Source of the DNA: Methanothrix sp. | Lineage (GTDB): Archaea > Halobacteriota > Methanosarcinia > Methanotrichales > Methanotrichaceae | NCBI RefSeq assembly: GCF_030055635.1 | Contig: NZ_JASFYM010000006.1 | Coordinates: 29,262 to 92,597, forward strand | Direction: 5' to 3' | Length of the DNA stretch: 63,336 nucleotides | Notes under the pieces: model-generated | What the model was told of the DNA's origin: nothing | The model's database searches: none | The model's input: the letters and a program-made list of their open reading frames with translations, nothing else | Part shown: piece by piece, positions 35,109-63,336 of the stretch | Layout of the letters: every line of letters starts with the position of its first letter | Position numbering within the stretch: the first letter of the stretch is position 1 | Program-made: the position numbers and the translations under genes

Positions 35109-35627
35109 ATGAGCAAGCAAGCTGCATTTCTGTTTCTTGTGTGCCTGCTACTGTATGTGCTCTGCTGTGATGCGTGCGCAGAGACGATCTCCCTCGGACC
35201 ACGGAGTATTTACATCGACATGAGCTGCGTGCCGGATCCGTATGTTGTAGTCCATGGGATGATCGAGGAGACGCACCGGCCAGAGGAGCTCAACTGCAAG
35301 CTCTACACAACCACCATCGGCCATGCGAATGATGTCGTTCTGGAGCTTCACAGGCTGGATGGAGAGATAAACGTGAGCATGGAGAGGCTGGTGCCGTTCG
35401 CTGAGCATCTTATTCCCCAGGGCTGGAGCACAGAGCATGGGGATTTTGAGGTGGATGGTCACAAGGGGGTACTCATAAATGCGACAGATCTCTACTATCC
35501 GAAGATGCGCCTGGTATGCTTCAGCCCTGACGGCGATGACGGCTGGGGGCGCGATATAATCGTCGGACGCTCCACGGTATGGGGCAACCGCAGCATCGAT
35601 CTCTTCAGATCGATACGGATACTGTAG
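35109..35627 (+). CDS. Hypothetical secreted protein (172 aa)
   Basis: Not recognised. The signal peptide MSKQAAFLFLVCLLLYVLCC leads to DACAETIS. The mature region has a few Cys residues and no catalytic motif. ATG 35109 is set by AGGAGG seven bases upstream, a site that belongs to a transposon-end-like repeat. A longer frame from 34983 overlaps rimI and is rejected. Likely exported or surface bound. Confidence 0.7.
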   Translation: MSKQAAFLFLVCLLLYVLCCDACAETISLGPRSIYIDMSCVPDPYVVVHGMIEETHRPEELNCKLYTTTIGHANDVVLELHRLDGEINVSMERLVPFAEHLIPQGWSTEHGDFEVDGHKGVLINATDLYYPKMRLVCFSPDGDDGWGRDIIVGRSTVWGNRSIDLFRSIRIL

Positions 35628-42206: not shown

Positions 42207-42250
42207 CGCACTCCTCTCCGGCCTGAAGACCGGAGCTTGCGCCATGTTTA
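42207..42250 (-). repeat. Solo IS605-type right-end hairpin
   Basis: GCACTCCT then CTCCGGCCTGAAGACCGGAG then CTTGCGCCATG, the cleanest copy of the family; the stem CTCCGG/CCGGAG is perfect. It lies between thyA and the thioredoxin gene. Confidence 0.65.
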
Positions 42251-42337
42251 TTATCTATAAGCCGCTCTGCTGGCGCGCCATCGAATGAAGATGCGTGATA
42301 TCGCACCGATGCGATCTCCTAGGGCGCCCGATGCGAC

Positions 42338-43343: not shown

Positions 43344-43375
43344 AGGAACCTCCTCGGGTGCAGTGGTAGCTGATC
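43344..43375 (+). repeat. Left-end-like repeat directly upstream of DUF1638 gene (site C)
   Basis: AGGAACCTCCTCGGGTGCAG then TGGTAGC matches the first 30 bases of the left end at 60016 (AGGAACCTCCTGGGGTGTAG then GGGGAGC) with five differences, and is placed identically relative to a start codon. The hairpin that should follow is missing. Confidence 0.4.
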
Positions 43376-53808: not shown

Positions 53809-54402
53809 TTGCATGCACGCCTGCCCTTCATTGCTTTGGTGCTTCTGATGATGCTCCCAGTCTCTTACGCCCAGGAGCCTCTGTGGGTTGGCCGTGGCGC
53901 CCCTGAGGATGTGGTGAATCTCGACGTGGGGGCGAGATCTCCTGGTTATGTGCCATCCTTCGGTACGAGGGGATTTGCAGCGCCTGTCTCCCCTCAGGTG
54001 ATGGCGCTGAGCCCGGGCGCGATGGTCCATCAGGCGGAATCGTTGCTCTCTGAGGCGAAGAGAGCACGAGATGATGTTCTATCCATCTACAACATGACGA
54101 GACTCCTGGTGGTTTACGCATCTGAGAACGCGAGCATCGCGAGATCGATGGCTGAATCCGCTGAGATGAACGCCGGAGCTGCCAAAACAAGCGTGTATGA
54201 ATGCAGGGCTGCTCTTAACGAGACGAGGAGCGTGAGATCTGAGGTCCTCTCCATCTACAACCTGACGAGACTCATGGCAGCTTATGCATATGAGAACGCG
54301 AGCATCGCGAGATCGATGGCTGAATCCGCGGAGACGAGCGCCAGAAGAGCTGAGACAGGCGCATACGAACGCGGGATGGCGGTGACTTCCCCTCCAGCCT
54401 GA
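53809..54402 (+). CDS. Secreted protein with two 51-residue repeats, 3' end made by a transposon end
   Basis: Signal peptide LPFIALVLLMMLPVSYAQ. Two helical repeats of about 51 residues follow (near 76-130 and 131-185), sharing the landmarks VLSIYN-TRL and ENASIARSMAESAE; they are likely coiled coils with N-glycosylation sites (NMT, NAS, NLT). The last residues (VTSPPA, stop) are encoded by the right-end repeat at 54382, so the original C-terminus is probably lost. Start TTG 53809 is chosen because AAAGGTGAT lies five to six bases upstream. Confidence 0.65.
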   Translation: MHARLPFIALVLLMMLPVSYAQEPLWVGRGAPEDVVNLDVGARSPGYVPSFGTRGFAAPVSPQVMALSPGAMVHQAESLLSEAKRARDDVLSIYNMTRLLVVYASENASIARSMAESAEMNAGAAKTSVYECRAALNETRSVRSEVLSIYNLTRLMAAYAYENASIARSMAESAETSARRAETGAYERGMAVTSPPA

Positions 54403-54424
54403 AAACCGGAGTTTACGCCCTCCT
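54382..54424 (-). repeat. Solo IS605-type right-end hairpin inside the 3' end of a gene
   Basis: GTGACTTCC then CCTCCAGCCTGAAAACCGGAG then TTTACGCCCT. It provides the stop codon (TGA of CCTGA) of the upstream secreted protein. Confidence 0.6.
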
Positions 54425-54559
54425 GCTCGCTATCAACGAGAGCAGCTCAAGCTCCTGCTCCAAGAATAATCAACGATAGATGCGATCTCCGTAAAAGGGG
54501 GCCGGTTGTCTCCGCCCATCCGGAAAGATTTTAGACTTTGGGATTCTGGGTAAAGCAGT

Positions 54560-59376: not shown

Positions 59377-60015
59377 TCAGCCCTGCAGCGGGCTGCGGCC
59401 TCTGCTCTTCACATCTATAAATGTTGGGAATCCCATCGCGTTCAGCTCATCCTCGCCGAGTAGAATGCTGTGGCCCTCTGCATCAAAGGCTCTGAGCCAT
59501 GATATCCGCCATCTCCCAGGCTCTGCATCCGCTGGCATCATGATATCGCCCCGGTAGAGAGCCCCGCTGGTGTTGCCAGCGCCTGCGGTCTGGTTCAGCT
59601 GCACCACTGCCGACATCCCGCCGGATGGGCTGACGAGCTTTATCGCTGGGGGAGATGATCCGGCCTCGGAGAGAGCGAGCGATATATTGAGCGTATCCAG
59701 GCTTGCGTTCAGCACGCGTGGCTCGATCGTGAGATTCAGCAGATCAGGCCCGAGCCTGGCATCGTGGGGGGATGATGCTCTCTCCTCTGCACCACCCGAT
59801 GGATCGCCGCCCGCAAGGACGATATTCTTCTCGATGGAGAACACCCCCACCATATCATCGGTCCTGAACCCGTACATCGCGGGGTGGAGCGATGTGCCTG
59901 CGCCCTCTGCAACGCCGTATGAGATGTGCGCCCATGATAACGAGCCCTGAGTCAGAATACAAAGCACGACCAGAAGCAGCGCCCTTCTGCGCATCTTATG
60001 AGAGGTCTTCTTCAT
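59377..60015 (-). CDS. Secreted hypothetical protein (212 aa)
   Basis: Signal peptide MKKTSHKMRRRALLLVVLCI then LTQGSLSWAH. The mature region is predicted beta-rich with several Asn glycosylation sites (NLT, NAS, NIS, NQT, NTS) and no catalytic motif; PPAIKLVSPSGG and ISLALSEAG suggest an immunoglobulin-like domain. ATG 60015 directly abuts the left end of a transposon remnant, which supplies AGGAGG five bases upstream. A longer frame to 60336 runs through the element and is rejected. Confidence 0.72.
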   Translation of the reverse strand: MKKTSHKMRRRALLLVVLCILTQGSLSWAHISYGVAEGAGTSLHPAMYGFRTDDMVGVFSIEKNIVLAGGDPSGGAEERASSPHDARLGPDLLNLTIEPRVLNASLDTLNISLALSEAGSSPPAIKLVSPSGGMSAVVQLNQTAGAGNTSGALYRGDIMMPADAEPGRWRISWLRAFDAEGHSILLGEDELNAMGFPTFIDVKSRGRSPLQG

Positions 60016-60379
60016 AGGAACCTCCTGGGGTGTAGGGGGAGCGGAAACCCCGCCATTCAGGTCGGGGAGGAGCGTACCCCACGCAGAAACAATATATACC
60101 TTTGTACCTGCTATTCTCTCCTGAGATGCCTTCTGACCCCAGAAGACACTCCGTAACGGAGAAACGGTTGCAACACGGAATGACGATAGGCATTTTGGAA
60201 CGCCCCGAATCCGTAGCAATGCGGAAGCTGAAACCTGCATTTGAGGCCAGGAGCGTCCCCAGGGTCGCCGCTCTTCGGAGCTATATCCTGTGATGTCAAC
60301 CGGCCTATTGTCTCGGACATGTCGGATTCTCCGCATGGCGCCAGGGACAAGCTCCGGTCTTCAGGCCGGAGTAGTTGAC
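60016..60379 (+). mobile_element. Internally deleted IS605-type element with both ends (PATE-like)
   Basis: The left end at 60016-60090 (AGGAACCTCCTGGGG, then GCGGAAACCCCGCCATTCAG and GGGGAGGAGCGTACCCC) is about 85% identical to the left end of the intact element at 62500. The right end at 60351-60379 (GCTCCGGTCTTCAGGCCGGAG then TAGTTGAC) is the family's right-end hairpin in the matching orientation. The 260 bp between them hold no TnpB core. Such palindrome-associated elements are known IS605 derivatives mobilised in trans. Confidence 0.65.
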
Positions 60380-60400
60380 GGTAGATGAAGATTGCTCAGA

Positions 60401-60444
60401 GTGACCCCCTCTCCGGCCTGAAGGCCAGAGCTTGCGCCCTGTTA
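60401..60444 (-). repeat. Solo IS605-type right-end hairpin, opposite orientation
   Basis: GTGACCCCCT then CTCCGGCCTGAAGGCCAGAG then CTTGCGCCCTGTT. It lies 22 bp beyond the end of the 60016-60379 element and points the other way, so it marks a second insertion. Confidence 0.6.
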
Positions 60445-60462
60445 TTCTCTGTCATGTGACTC

Positions 60463-60999
60463 TCAACGTCGTCTGGATCGCCAGATGTGCATTGTGACTG
60501 TAGCAAGCAGAGACCACAGGATACCCGCTGCATGAACCTGCTTCTCTTCTCTCCCACTCACGTTACTGGTTTCAGGGTGCTCTTCAGCCTGCACATTCTC
60601 CTCAACAGCAATCCCTGCGACCCCGCTCACGTTCTCGACTACCACATGGAAGCTCCTGTAGTTTGGCGGGGAGCCCTTTGCAGAGATCCCGACCTCTATG
60701 GTGTGATTCGCAGGAGCAATATCTCCCGCTGAGAGATTCACGTTGAACGTCATCCTGCCGCCGGGATAGACCCATCTGGCTCTCGTCACATTCGAGACCG
60801 ATATACCAGGAGGCAGGCCTCTGAACACGAGCCTGGCATAGGCTCCGTCACCGCCTATGTTCTGTATGGTTATCGGAAGAGTTATTGTGGTGTTTGGCCT
60901 CATGCTCACATCGGGAGCATCAATGACCTTGAAGTACGGCGTGGCAGCTGCAGCGCTCAGAGCTGCATAAATAACCAAAATCATGGCAAGTTTTCTCAT
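60463..60999 (-). CDS. Membrane-anchored extracellular protein with NEW1/CARDB-like beta domain (178 aa)
   Basis: Signal peptide KLAMILVIYAALSAAAA; residues 20-125 form a beta-sandwich like those that carry adhesion or S-layer-associated domains (PNTTITLPITIQNIGGDGAY, LPPGISVSNV, YPGGRMTFNVNLSAGD), with several NxS/T sites; a Glu-rich spacer leads to a C-terminal span (AAGILWSLLATVTMHIW) and RSRRR. This tripartite tail resembles archaeosortase substrates, but no PGF motif is present. ATG 60999 lies at the edge of a repeat. Confidence 0.65.
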   Translation of the reverse strand: MRKLAMILVIYAALSAAAATPYFKVIDAPDVSMRPNTTITLPITIQNIGGDGAYARLVFRGLPPGISVSNVTRARWVYPGGRMTFNVNLSAGDIAPANHTIEVGISAKGSPPNYRSFHVVVENVSGVAGIAVEENVQAEEHPETSNVSGREEKQVHAAGILWSLLATVTMHIWRSRRR

Positions 61000-61034
61000 A
61001 TGAGATCACCAGGGAGACCGTCTCCTTTAGGGGA
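60996..61034. repeat. Direct repeat, copy 1 (start-codon overlapping; site E)
   Basis: TCATATGAGATCACCAGGG then AGACCGTCTCCTTTAGGGG. It contains the palindrome GGAGACCGTCTCC and, on the minus strand, ends at the ATG of the 60463-60999 gene. The second copy is at 61177-61217. Confidence 0.55.
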
Positions 61035-61176
61035 TGGGCGGCTCACGATAGTTACATTATCAAATTTTATAAAAGCATTTCCGGCCGGTGGATAATTGAC
61101 CGGAGACCAGCGAGTACAGGAGTTCAGAAGATCTAGCTGTACAGGCCAGCTGGATCAGTGATAGCAGGGATTGCGA

Positions 61177-61217
61177 TCATATGAGATCACCGTGGAGACC
61201 CGTCTCCTTTGGGGGGG
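61177..61217. repeat. Direct repeat, copy 2
   Basis: TCATATGAGATCACCGTGG then AGACCCGTCTCCTTTGGGG, about 90% identical to copy 1 at 60996-61034. On the minus strand it again ends in an ATG, here opening only a 15-codon frame. Confidence 0.55.
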
Positions 61218-61221
61218 GCAG

Positions 61222-61250
61222 GTAGCTTAAGCTGGTGGGTCCCAAGCTAC
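61222..61250 (-). terminator. Hairpin at the stop codon of the GATase-like gene
   Basis: GTAGCTT (61222-61228) pairs with AAGCTAC (61244-61250) and overlaps the TAG stop at 61247-61249. It could act as a 3' hairpin; archaeal termination does not require one, so the role is uncertain. Confidence 0.3.
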
Positions 61251-61804
61251 AGCTCGCACTTCACAAACCTCTCCAGGATCCAGCGGTTCCTGACCTCTGG
61301 GTTGAATAAAACGCCATAGAGAGGTCGATCGCGCGCCACAAAAGCCTCGCAGTTCTCCGCTACTGCAATCAGTTCGGATGGGAGCACCAGCTGGAAGCTG
61401 TGCAGATGGAACGCAGGTATGATCCGCGGTTCTCCAAGAAGCGGGGTCTCAGCGGAGATCACCACATTCTCCATCCCGATGTGAATGCCTGAAAGCACTC
61501 TTCCGCCAAGAACAGAGCATATGACAGCAGCTCCGGTCGATATTCCCAGCACCGGGCGTTTCCAGTCCTGTAGCCAGGAGAGCTGCTCTGCATCATCAAT
61601 ACAGCATCTGTCCTTGAGAGCTGTGCCGCAGAGCACCACCTTATCGTAACCAGATGGATCCTCAAGCTCCCTGTAATGCATAACATCAATCTCCGCGCCG
61701 GCCCTGCGGAGCGCATTTGCGACAGGATCGACGAACTCGTACCTGGAGAGCGAGCCATCGCGATAGCAGAGGTCCAGAACAAGGATCACGTTTATTCTCC
61801 CCAC
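61247..61804 (-). CDS. Class I glutamine amidotransferase-like protein lacking the catalytic Cys
   Basis: 185 residues with the flavodoxin-like GATase I layout: VILVLDLCYRDGSLSRYEFV at the start, KVVLCGTALKD near 55, the nucleophile elbow VLGISTGAAV near 85, FHLHSFQLVLP, and GVLFNPEVRN at the position of the usual FHPE. The elbow Cys is Ser and the triad His position is Asn, so glutaminase activity is unlikely. It follows the diphthine-ammonia ligase gene by five bases and probably forms an operon with it. Confidence 0.75.
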   Translation of the reverse strand: MGRINVILVLDLCYRDGSLSRYEFVDPVANALRRAGAEIDVMHYRELEDPSGYDKVVLCGTALKDRCCIDDAEQLSWLQDWKRPVLGISTGAAVICSVLGGRVLSGIHIGMENVVISAETPLLGEPRIIPAFHLHSFQLVLPSELIAVAENCEAFVARDRPLYGVLFNPEVRNRWILERFVKCEL

Positions 61805-61809
61805 ATATA

Positions 61810-62499
61810 TTAATTTGCGGTCTTCTCCACAAGCCTCGCTGACTCGATCACGTATTTCCCGCGGTTGCCGCTGAAGAGCCTTTCAGCTCTGAGCACCTCC
61901 AGCCGTCTCCTGAATATCGGCCCGTCCAGAACCAGCGTCTCCAGCTCGCCGCCCTCTCCTGAGGGGCTTATTCCGTATCTCTTTTGAAGCCTCTCGAGCT
62001 TTTCTATCATTCTGTCATCAATCTCCGCGCCCAGAAAGCTCTCATCCAGGGGGTACGCAAAGACGCCTGTCACAATGACCCTGAAGCCGCGGGCAGTCAG
62101 CATTCTCAGATAATCGAGCTGATCGATCTGCCAGAGCGGGTTGAAGCACCAGAGATCGAGCTCGCTGCAGATCCTCTGGATTCTCGACGACTGATAGACG
62201 GACTCGATCGCGCCCGTCACTATCCCATCGATGCTGTAGAGCCTACACGCCTCGATGATCGCCTCCCTCAGATCATTCAGCTCCATCTCCTCCACGCCCG
62301 GGGTTCGCCACTTCAGCATATCGATGCCGATAGCAGATGCCACAAGCTCCGCGAGCCCTATGTTCTGCGTGTGGAACATGTAGCTCTCCTCATTTTCAGA
62401 TATCAGGGTGATTAGGCACCGCACATCCTCCTTTTCCATCGCCCTGTAGCAGGCGAACACAGAGTCCTTGCCGCCGCTGAAGAGAACTCCAAGTTTCAT
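61810..62499 (-). CDS. dph6: Diphthine--ammonia ligase (Dph6-like ATP pyrophosphatase)
   Basis: 229 residues. The PP-loop SGGKDSVFACY near the N-terminus binds ATP; IENEESYMFHTQN-like ENEESYMFHTQNIGLAELVA, VTGAIESVYQSSRI, FNPLWQIDQLDYLRML and GEGGELETLVLDGPIF are the diagnostic blocks of the Dph6 family. It performs the last amidation in diphthamide synthesis on elongation factor 2. ATG 62499 abuts the left end of the intact tnpB element, which supplies AGGAGGTTCT upstream. Confidence 0.92.
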   Translation of the reverse strand: MKLGVLFSGGKDSVFACYRAMEKEDVRCLITLISENEESYMFHTQNIGLAELVASAIGIDMLKWRTPGVEEMELNDLREAIIEACRLYSIDGIVTGAIESVYQSSRIQRICSELDLWCFNPLWQIDQLDYLRMLTARGFRVIVTGVFAYPLDESFLGAEIDDRMIEKLERLQKRYGISPSGEGGELETLVLDGPIFRRRLEVLRAERLFSGNRGKYVIESARLVEKTAN

Positions 62500-63336
62500 A
62501 GAACCTCCTGGGGGTAGGGGTAGCGGAAACCCCGCCCTTCAGGGCGTGGAGGAGCGTACCCCACCCATATAAACTGAAATTTATATACAAAGTGAACATA
62601 TCCCTCAATACAATGCTTCAGACTCTGATGGTCCGGCTCGATCCAGACGATGAACAGTATAAGATCCTTCTGGAGACGATGCACCGTTTCAACGAGGCCT
62701 GTAACTACATCGCAGAAGTGGCGTACTCCATCGGGAAGGCCAATAAGTACGTAGTCCATAAAGCTGTCTACTATGACGTTAGGAAGCGATTCGGTCTCTC
62801 TGCACAGCTCACTGTCAGAGCGATATCCAAGGTTGTTGAGGCATACAAGCGAGATCGATCTGTTAAGCCGCAGTTCCGGCCTGATGGGGCGATTGTTTAC
62901 GACCAGCGCATACTCTCCTGGAAGGGGCTCGAAGCAGTCTCGCTGACAACACTCGAAGGCCGGCAGCTTATCCCCCTCAGGATTGGCGATTACCAGAAAG
63001 CTCGGATGGATCGGGTTCGTGGTCAAGCAGATCTGATACTCAGAAACGGTGTGTTCTATCTTGCTGTTGCTGTCGAAGCTCCAGAGGAGACTCCCTACGA
63101 GCCCAGAGGGGTTCTGGGTGTCGATCTCGGTATCAAGTATCCCGCTGTTGATTCTGATGGGGAGATACACAGCGGCGAGAAGCTTCTGGAGACCAGAAAG
63201 CGGCTTGATTCGCTCAGAGCCAGGCTCCAGAGTGTGGGTACCAGGTCTGCTAAAAGGCATCTCAAGAAGCTCTCCGGCAGGATGAAGCGATTCACCAGGG
63301 ATGTCAACCATCGCATCTCCAGGCATATAGTCGCGA
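62500..63336 (+). mobile_element. IS200/IS605-family element with intact tnpB (left part, truncated by the window)
   Basis: The left end begins exactly after the start codon of dph6 (TCAT then AGAACCTCCTGGGGG) and contains a nested hairpin: outer GGGGTA/TACCCC around inner CGCCC-TTCA-GGGCG. An AT-rich promoter (CATATAAACTGAAATTTATATAC) leads to tnpB at 62613. No tnpA is seen on the left; the right end is outside the window. Confidence 0.8.
62613..63336 (+). CDS. tnpB: TnpB RNA-guided nuclease of an IS605-type element (5' part)
   Basis: Open to the window end for 241 codons. The protein starts MLQTLMVRLDPDDEQYKILL; residues 175-185 hold the first RuvC catalytic Asp in GVLGVDLGIKYPAVDSDG, followed by the helical LDSLRARLQSVGTRSAKRHL and RMKRFTRDVNHRISRHIV, the conserved block between RuvC-I and II. 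The Glu and zinc finger lie beyond the window. In related proteins it cuts target DNA with an omega RNA from the element's 3' end. Codon use agrees with an active or recently active gene. Confidence 0.9.
   Translation, partial: MLQTLMVRLDPDDEQYKILLETMHRFNEACNYIAEVAYSIGKANKYVVHKAVYYDVRKRFGLSAQLTVRAISKVVEAYKRDRSVKPQFRPDGAIVYDQRILSWKGLEAVSLTTLEGRQLIPLRIGDYQKARMDRVRGQADLILRNGVFYLAVAVEAPEETPYEPRGVLGVDLGIKYPAVDSDGEIHSGEKLLETRKRLDSLRARLQSVGTRSAKRHLKKLSGRMKRFTRDVNHRISRHIVA

What the first reader, a model, noticed from the sequence alone, without database searches (positions are those of the whole stretch)
62500..62570. Transposon left ends abut start codons and supply their ribosome binding sites
At 62499 (dph6), 60015 (secreted protein), 43343 (DUF1638) and 35109 (secreted protein) the gene's ATG directly touches an IS605-type left end, or a degenerate form of it, which contributes AGGAGGTTCCT- or AGGAGGTTACGCC-type spacing to the ATG. 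Two further sites (60999 and 61177) have a different hairpin repeat placed the same way. In every case the base order on the element side is TCAT, the reverse complement of ATGA. If TCAT or TTCAT is the insertion and TnpB target motif, these elements would land antisense on start codons yet leave the gene translated by bringing their own Shine-Dalgarno. I know of no description of this. Caveat: TCAT is guaranteed by any ATGA start, so chance must be tested.
Basis: partly seen in the sequence, partly recalled or inferred. Interest (0 to 1): 0.72.

Follow-up and report, generated by a model that had tools for sequence, protein, structure and literature searches.

The report
Transposons that bring start-site ribosome signals
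In a group of methane-making archaea, small jumping DNA elements insert exactly at the start of genes, cutting the gene off from its own ribosome signal or promoter but carrying a replacement ribosome signal in their end, so the gene can probably still be read; this looks like an undescribed way for a transposon to make itself harmless.

Summary
The core observation is right. At all four main window sites (62499, 60015, 43343, 35109) an IS605/IS1341-type left end, or its relic, touches the ATG and supplies AGGAGG. The two extra sites (60999, 61177) are a local duplication, not a transposon family.

Orthologs in five relatives give exact empty sites. At several loci the native Shine-Dalgarno (SD) now lies beyond the insert; dph6 lost its nearby promoter. 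Across related elements a guide base beside the left hairpin covaries with the target: G with TCAT/TCAC, A with TTAT, C with TGAT. Only TCAT/TCAC lineages, whose complement is an ATGA or GTGA start, carry an SD in their tip (median pairing energy with the 16S tail -9.9 against +0.2 kcal/mol).

Among 42 unique copies in six genomes, 12-16 sit at gene starts (29-38%), against 14-18% of non-coding TCAT sites. The SD core is intact in 16/16 start copies and 13/26 others. In orthologous relics the SD is conserved while the rest decays.

So this is an IS605-family lineage that hits start codons because of its target motif and survives there by carrying a portable SD. Enrichment is about two-fold, and translation is unmeasured. 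I found no prior description.

The parts
62500..62571 (+). Left end (LE) of the IS1341-type element, outer edge touching the dph6 ATG (62497-62499, - strand)
   Evidence: sequence; 14 copies in own genome
62502..62509 (-). AGGAGGTT Shine-Dalgarno supplied by the LE tip, 4 nt after GGAGG to the dph6 ATG
   Evidence: sequence; genome spacing of GGAGG to starts mostly 4-9 nt
62523..62530 (+). GCGGAAAC guide-like motif 5' of the LE hairpin, covarying with the TCAT target
62530..62549 (+). LE subterminal hairpin CCCCGCCCTTCAGGGCGTGG
   Evidence: sequence
62613..63336 (+). tnpB, cut by the contig end; close copies L002 and L003 are intact at 368 aa
   Evidence: Pfam PF07282 and PF01385 on the L002 protein
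61810..62499 (-). dph6 (diphthamide synthase) whose ATG is the target site
   Evidence: orthologs with a different upstream region
60016..60379 (+). 364-bp non-autonomous element (LE + body + RE, no tnpB) abutting the ATG of the 60015 gene
   Evidence: alignment of copies; empty site in ortholog L141
60352..60371 (+). RE hairpin CTCCGGTCTTCAGGCCGGAG; the RE ends at GTTGAC (60379)
   Evidence: 33-34 nt identical to the RE of tnpB copies
59377..60015 (-). Predicted secreted protein gene starting at the element edge
   Evidence: gene calls; ortholog L141
35053..35108 (+). Relic of the ~58-bp ends-only element between native SD GGAAGGAGGT and the ATG at 35109; keeps CAGGAGGTTACGCC
   Evidence: model hit; G003 relic, G001 and G004 empty sites
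43344..43375 (+). Relic of the ends-only element before the DUF1638 ATG; keeps AGGAGGTTCCT (- strand)
   Evidence: relics in four relatives, empty in G002

Best explanation
This is a lineage of IS200/IS605-family elements (IS1341-type, tnpB only) with 364-bp and ~58-bp non-autonomous derivatives, living in one family of methanogenic archaea. The guide GCGGAAAC beside the left hairpin pairs with TCAT (mostly TTCAT), the complement of ATGA(A), so gene starts are among its targets. Insertion there puts the element between the gene's own SD or promoter and its ATG. The element's left tip reads, towards the gene, CAGGAGGTTCT|ATGA, so it supplies a new SD at a usable distance. Insertions at starts are therefore tolerated and even kept: the SD stays conserved after the rest of the element has decayed. 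Shown by sequence: insertion point, empty sites, guide-target covariation, SD presence and retention. Inferred: that ribosomes use this SD, that the longer copies also bring a promoter, and that a TnpA supplied in trans did the moving.
For: Exact empty sites in orthologs; native SD found beyond the insert at the RHH gene, NFACT and the 35109 gene; guide-target covariation; SD only in TCAT/TCAC lineages; SD core kept 16/16 at starts against 13/26 elsewhere; SD conserved in orthologous relics 135/156 against 604/1147; excess at starts; start-abutting copies also in two other genera (L244, L248); hosts include core genes such as O-phosphoseryl-tRNA synthetase, AglB and NFACT.
Against: More than half of the copies are not at starts, and the excess is only about two-fold. 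A G002 sub-family with a weakened SD is not at starts, which fits but is few copies. No expression data. Y1 TnpA is absent from this genome, so current movement is unlikely. SD-bearing lineages are related, so the SD-target association may rest on few evolutionary events.
Confidence: 0.78

Rival explanations
1. Plain motif coincidence: the element targets TCAT, coding insertions are lost, gene starts are a sizeable share of the tolerated TCAT sites, and the AGGAGG in the tip is an accident or serves transposition. Nothing in the element evolved for gene starts.
For: 14-18% of tolerated TCAT sites are starts anyway, and the excess is only about two-fold; many SD-bearing copies have no gene at the edge.
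Against: SD appears only in lineages whose target complements a start, with different tip sequences; SD retained at starts but not elsewhere; without an SD the separated native signals should make start insertions deleterious.
Confidence: 0.15
2. Host exaptation only: ordinary neutral insertions near starts, of which hosts kept the few that happened to make a good ribosome site. The element gains nothing from the SD.
For: Old relics shared by several species keep only the SD (DUF1638, AglB).
Against: The SD is already in the element consensus, including copies away from genes such as L038, L039 and L044, so it precedes insertion.
Confidence: 0.2
3. Not a transposon but a conserved 5'-leader RNA element or regulatory repeat.
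For: A hairpin directly upstream of start codons in unrelated genes.
Against: Presence or absence between relatives at the same locus with clean junctions; tnpB inside some copies; no Rfam family at the window sites; no unusual leader fold.
Confidence: 0.02

Closest known systems
IS608 and other IS200/IS605 elements
   Same: Subterminal hairpins, insertion 3' of a short target with no target duplication, target chosen by a guide 5' of the left hairpin (PMC5934647).
   Different: Here the target complements a start codon and the left tip carries an SD for the gene it lands on.
PATEs of Haloquadratum (IS605-derived, terminal-only)
   Same: Non-autonomous elements with near-terminal palindromes, down to 52 bp, arising by core deletion (PMC3119063).
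   Different: That paper's text contains no mention of start codons or ribosome signals (term counts zero).
IStrons
   Same: An IS-family element that limits the damage of its own insertion (PMC4227781).
   Different: IStrons do it by self-splicing of a group I intron; here by a replacement ribosome signal, with no intron found.
IS elements with outward promoters (from general knowledge)
   Same: The end of an element supplies an expression signal to the neighbouring gene.
   Different: There it is a promoter upstream of the gene; here a translation signal placed exactly at the start codon by the target motif.

Membership tests
IS200/IS605 family, IS1341 group | tnpB (OrfB) with RuvC and zinc-ribbon domains | tested here: met
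   PF07282 and PF01385 on the 368-aa L002 protein
IS200/IS605 family, IS1341 group | Subterminal hairpins at both ends, no terminal inverted repeats | tested here: met
   LE and RE hairpins seen directly in aligned copies
IS200/IS605 family, IS1341 group | Insertion 3' of a 4-5 nt target with no target duplication | tested here: met
   TCAT/TTCAT at the left flank; empty sites without duplication
IS200/IS605 family, IS1341 group | Guide 5' of the left hairpin pairs with the target | tested here: met
   covariation G-TCAT/TCAC 30, A-TTAT 13, C-TGAT 11, nine copies not fitting
IS200/IS605 family (complete element) | Y1 tnpA in the element or genome | tested here: not met
   no PF01797 match in own genome and four of five congeners; the G002 one has a different left flank
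IS200/IS605 family, IS1341 group | Active ssDNA transposition | not testable with these tools
   needs experiment
PATE (palindrome-associated element) | Too short for a transposase, near-terminal palindromes, ends related to IS605-type elements | tested here: met
   364-bp and ~58-bp forms
MITE in the strict sense | Terminal inverted repeats and target duplications | tested here: not met
   ends are not inverted repeats and empty sites show no duplication
IStron | Group I intron in the element | tested here: not met
   no Rfam intron match in 59700-63336, including the complete 60016-60379 element

The most novel reading that the evidence does not exclude
A transposon lineage that, by one base of its DNA guide, targets the complement of start codons and has evolved a portable Shine-Dalgarno in its tip, so that it neutralises the damage of landing on a start codon and uses gene starts as a safe haven; its ~58-bp derivatives act as mobile ribosome-binding sites that hosts have kept.
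Probability: 0.6. Interest if true: 0.85.

Novelty: new variant of a known kind. Interest (0 to 1): 0.74.

Why it matters
Mobile elements are known to survive by landing in safe places, by splicing out, or by bringing promoters. Here the guide that chooses the target and the repair of the damage appear matched in one end of the element: the target is the complement of a start codon and the tip supplies the missing ribosome signal. It would explain how a transposon can sit on the start of core genes, give a natural source of new 5' leaders (including for a gene whose relatives look leaderless), and make a simple prediction: moving the guide from TTAT to TCAT should pay only when the tip carries an SD.

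Tried and rejected
The hairpin at 60999/61177 as a second start-codon element family: rejected, only three places in six genomes. The Y1 transposase of G002 as the mover: its flanks do not show this left end. Exclusive start-codon targeting: rejected, more than half of the copies are elsewhere. A special leader fold: no support, z-scores between -1.1 and +0.2. Rfam: nothing near any gathering score. Model R2, built without the SD, mostly hit hairpins of another element type, so it was not used for counting. Literature: seven full-text searches and one more on PATEs found no description of IS605 ends supplying an SD at start codons; most subscription papers are not covered.

Full report
What is there. 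The window lies in a 1.76-Mb genome of an archaeon; genes such as dph6, AglB and O-phosphoseryl-tRNA synthetase fit a methanogen. A 125-bp query from the dph6 left end finds 14 copies in it and further copies in congeners. The full element is LE (hairpin CCCCGCCCTTCAGGGCGGGG), tnpB of 368 aa (PF07282, PF01385) and RE ending ...CCGGAGTAGTTGAC, with the tnpB stop codon overlapping the RE. Other copies lack tnpB: a 364-bp form sharing LE and RE, as at 60016-60379, and a ~58-bp form in which the LE tip is fused to the RE tip. Haloquadratum has the same progression from IS605-type elements to 52-bp terminal-only PATEs (PMC3119063).

The junction. In most copies the flank before the LE is TCAT, mostly TTCAT, and the LE begins AGAACCTCCTGGGG. 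Read towards the flank this is CCCCAGGAGGTTCT|ATGA, with four bases between GGAGG and an ATG. GGAGG in this genome usually stands 4-9 nt before starts, and only about 13% of genes have it.

Are these real gene starts? Orthologs in five congeners answer this. Ribbon-helix-helix gene: relatives have an SD directly before ATGAAGGCACC without an insert, and the own far flank ends GGGAGGTAC. L045 gene and the 60015 gene: the far flank matches an ortholog's upstream sequence up to the ATG. dph6: three relatives have a TTTTTAAT-like box about 25-30 nt before the ATG and no SD, suggesting a leaderless gene (inference); here the element has separated that region from the ATG. NFACT: own genome, G001 and G004 carry the short form between GCGGGGAG or GCGGGAGG and ATGAAG, while G002, G003 and G005 have GCGGAG...|ATGAAG. 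AglB: present in five species, empty in G002. DUF1638 (window 43343): relics in five species, empty in G002. 35109 gene: relic here and in G003, empty in G001 and G004. L040: relatives have AAGGAG-CCTTC (one a variant) before ATGAGATCATGACAG; the element replaces the SD at that ATGA, 8 bp before the called start. The L049 gene lacks nine bases (ATGAGACGG or similar) present in relatives, so its exact history is uncertain. Products include O-phosphoseryl-tRNA synthetase, AglB, NFACT and a nickel insertion protein and an RNA ligase, so core genes tolerate the insert.

Chance. A codon-usage gene caller was trained on the window. In 863 kb, TCAT sites outside genes or exactly at a start are called starts in 14-18% of cases (TTCAT 12-16%); of all TCAT sites in the own genome 3.5%. 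I took 42 unique copies scoring 35 bits or more with model R1 in six genomes, shared insertions counted once. Strictly at a start (-1 to +1): 13 with SD-weighted gene calls, 12 without the SD term. Within -1 to +8: 16 or 14. Binomial p is 4e-4 to 0.02 (strict) and 1e-5 to 0.006 (near) against background rates of 0.11 and 0.155 (one point higher for near); against the highest measured background (0.176) it would be weaker. So there is an excess of about two-fold over tolerated sites; many insertions at starts follow simply from a TCAT target and loss of coding insertions. The short L071/L072 gene is not called although orthologs support its start, so counts are slightly conservative. R1 includes the SD region, a mild bias.

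Does the SD matter? All 16 start copies keep an SD core, 13 of 26 others do (Fisher 5e-4; without the SD term in gene calling 14/14 against 15/28, 0.0016). In G002 a sub-family with CAGGGGTTTT has no start insertions. Among orthologous relics the six SD columns are identical in 135/156 comparisons against 604/1147 for the rest; the AglB set is slightly misaligned there, so the SD figure is an underestimate. In DUF1638 little is left but the SD.

Target choice. A wider search covered 50 genomes of the family. The guide-like motif G[CA]G-N-AA[AG]C sits just 5' of the LE hairpin. N is G in 30 copies with TCAT or TCAC, A in 13 with TTAT, C in 11 with TGAT (plus one TGAC); eight other copies do not fit, five of them TCAT copies with T in congeners. 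Three copies with TTCAC have AAGC instead of AAAC. This is the pairing logic shown for IS608 (PMC5934647). It makes TCAT, the complement of ATGA, the lineage's target independently of any start codon.

The SD goes with the target. Tips of TCAT/TCAC elements pair with the consensus archaeal 16S tail at a median -9.9 kcal/mol; tips of TTAT/TGAT elements at +0.2 (Mann-Whitney 1e-10; copies are related, so the p-value is only descriptive). The SD-bearing tips differ in sequence (AGGAGGTTCT, AGGTGATTCT, GGAGGGCGTT, GGAGCGATCT, GAGGCGTT) yet remain SD-like, which argues for selection rather than mere descent. In other genera, L244 (CBS-domain gene) and L248 (470-aa gene) also sit exactly at starts, while several other TCAT copies there do not.

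How it most likely works. Shown: target, insertion point, separation of the native signals from the ATG, a new SD, its retention. Inferred: ribosomes use it; longer copies may bring a TATA-like promoter (AT-rich TATATAAA or GATATATC beyond the hairpin); the short copies leave the native promoter about 58 bp further upstream and act as a leader insert; movement needed a TnpA now absent from this genome.

Limits. No expression data; draft genomes; one archaeal family; few independent lineages. The anti-SD was taken from general knowledge of archaeal 16S rRNA, not read from this genome.

Noticed in passing
window 60411-60460, 54392-54440, 42216-42260 (also L053-L056, L273-L275, L278): A second, more numerous repeat with the same hairpin but guide GCGCAAAC and target TGAT, often followed by CTATCA; no SD in its tip. 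Looks like a sister lineage of ends-only elements.
   Followed up: partly
L249-L258, L266-L271, L279, L281: In other genera of the family a TTAT-targeting lineage with guide GAGAAAAC has a shorter left tip; the SD bases are missing.
   Followed up: partly
L195, L197, L200, L075, L077 (upstream of AglB): Five species carry short elements at the same ATG but with clearly different hairpins; either repeated insertion at one start codon or fast turnover of the hairpin.
   Followed up: no
window 60999-61060 and 61177-61240: Local duplication of an upstream region with hairpin GGAGAC...GTCTCC and GGTGATCTCATATG; one further copy near the dph6 ortholog in G004.
   Followed up: yes
L153-L156, L164, L040: Conserved ATGAGATCATGA (or ATGAGACCATGA) before the L040 gene: a three-codon upstream frame overlapping the gene's ATG, directly after an SD; possible translational coupling.
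   Followed up: no
L073, L084 (G004): At these insertions the ATGA start appears to overlap an upstream gene's TGA stop in relatives, so the insert may also change the end of the upstream gene.
   Followed up: no
window 60090-60120 and 62571-62600: AT-rich stretches just beyond the LE (ATATATAC; TATATAAATTTCAGTTTATAT on the - strand) could be promoters reading towards the host gene.
   Followed up: no
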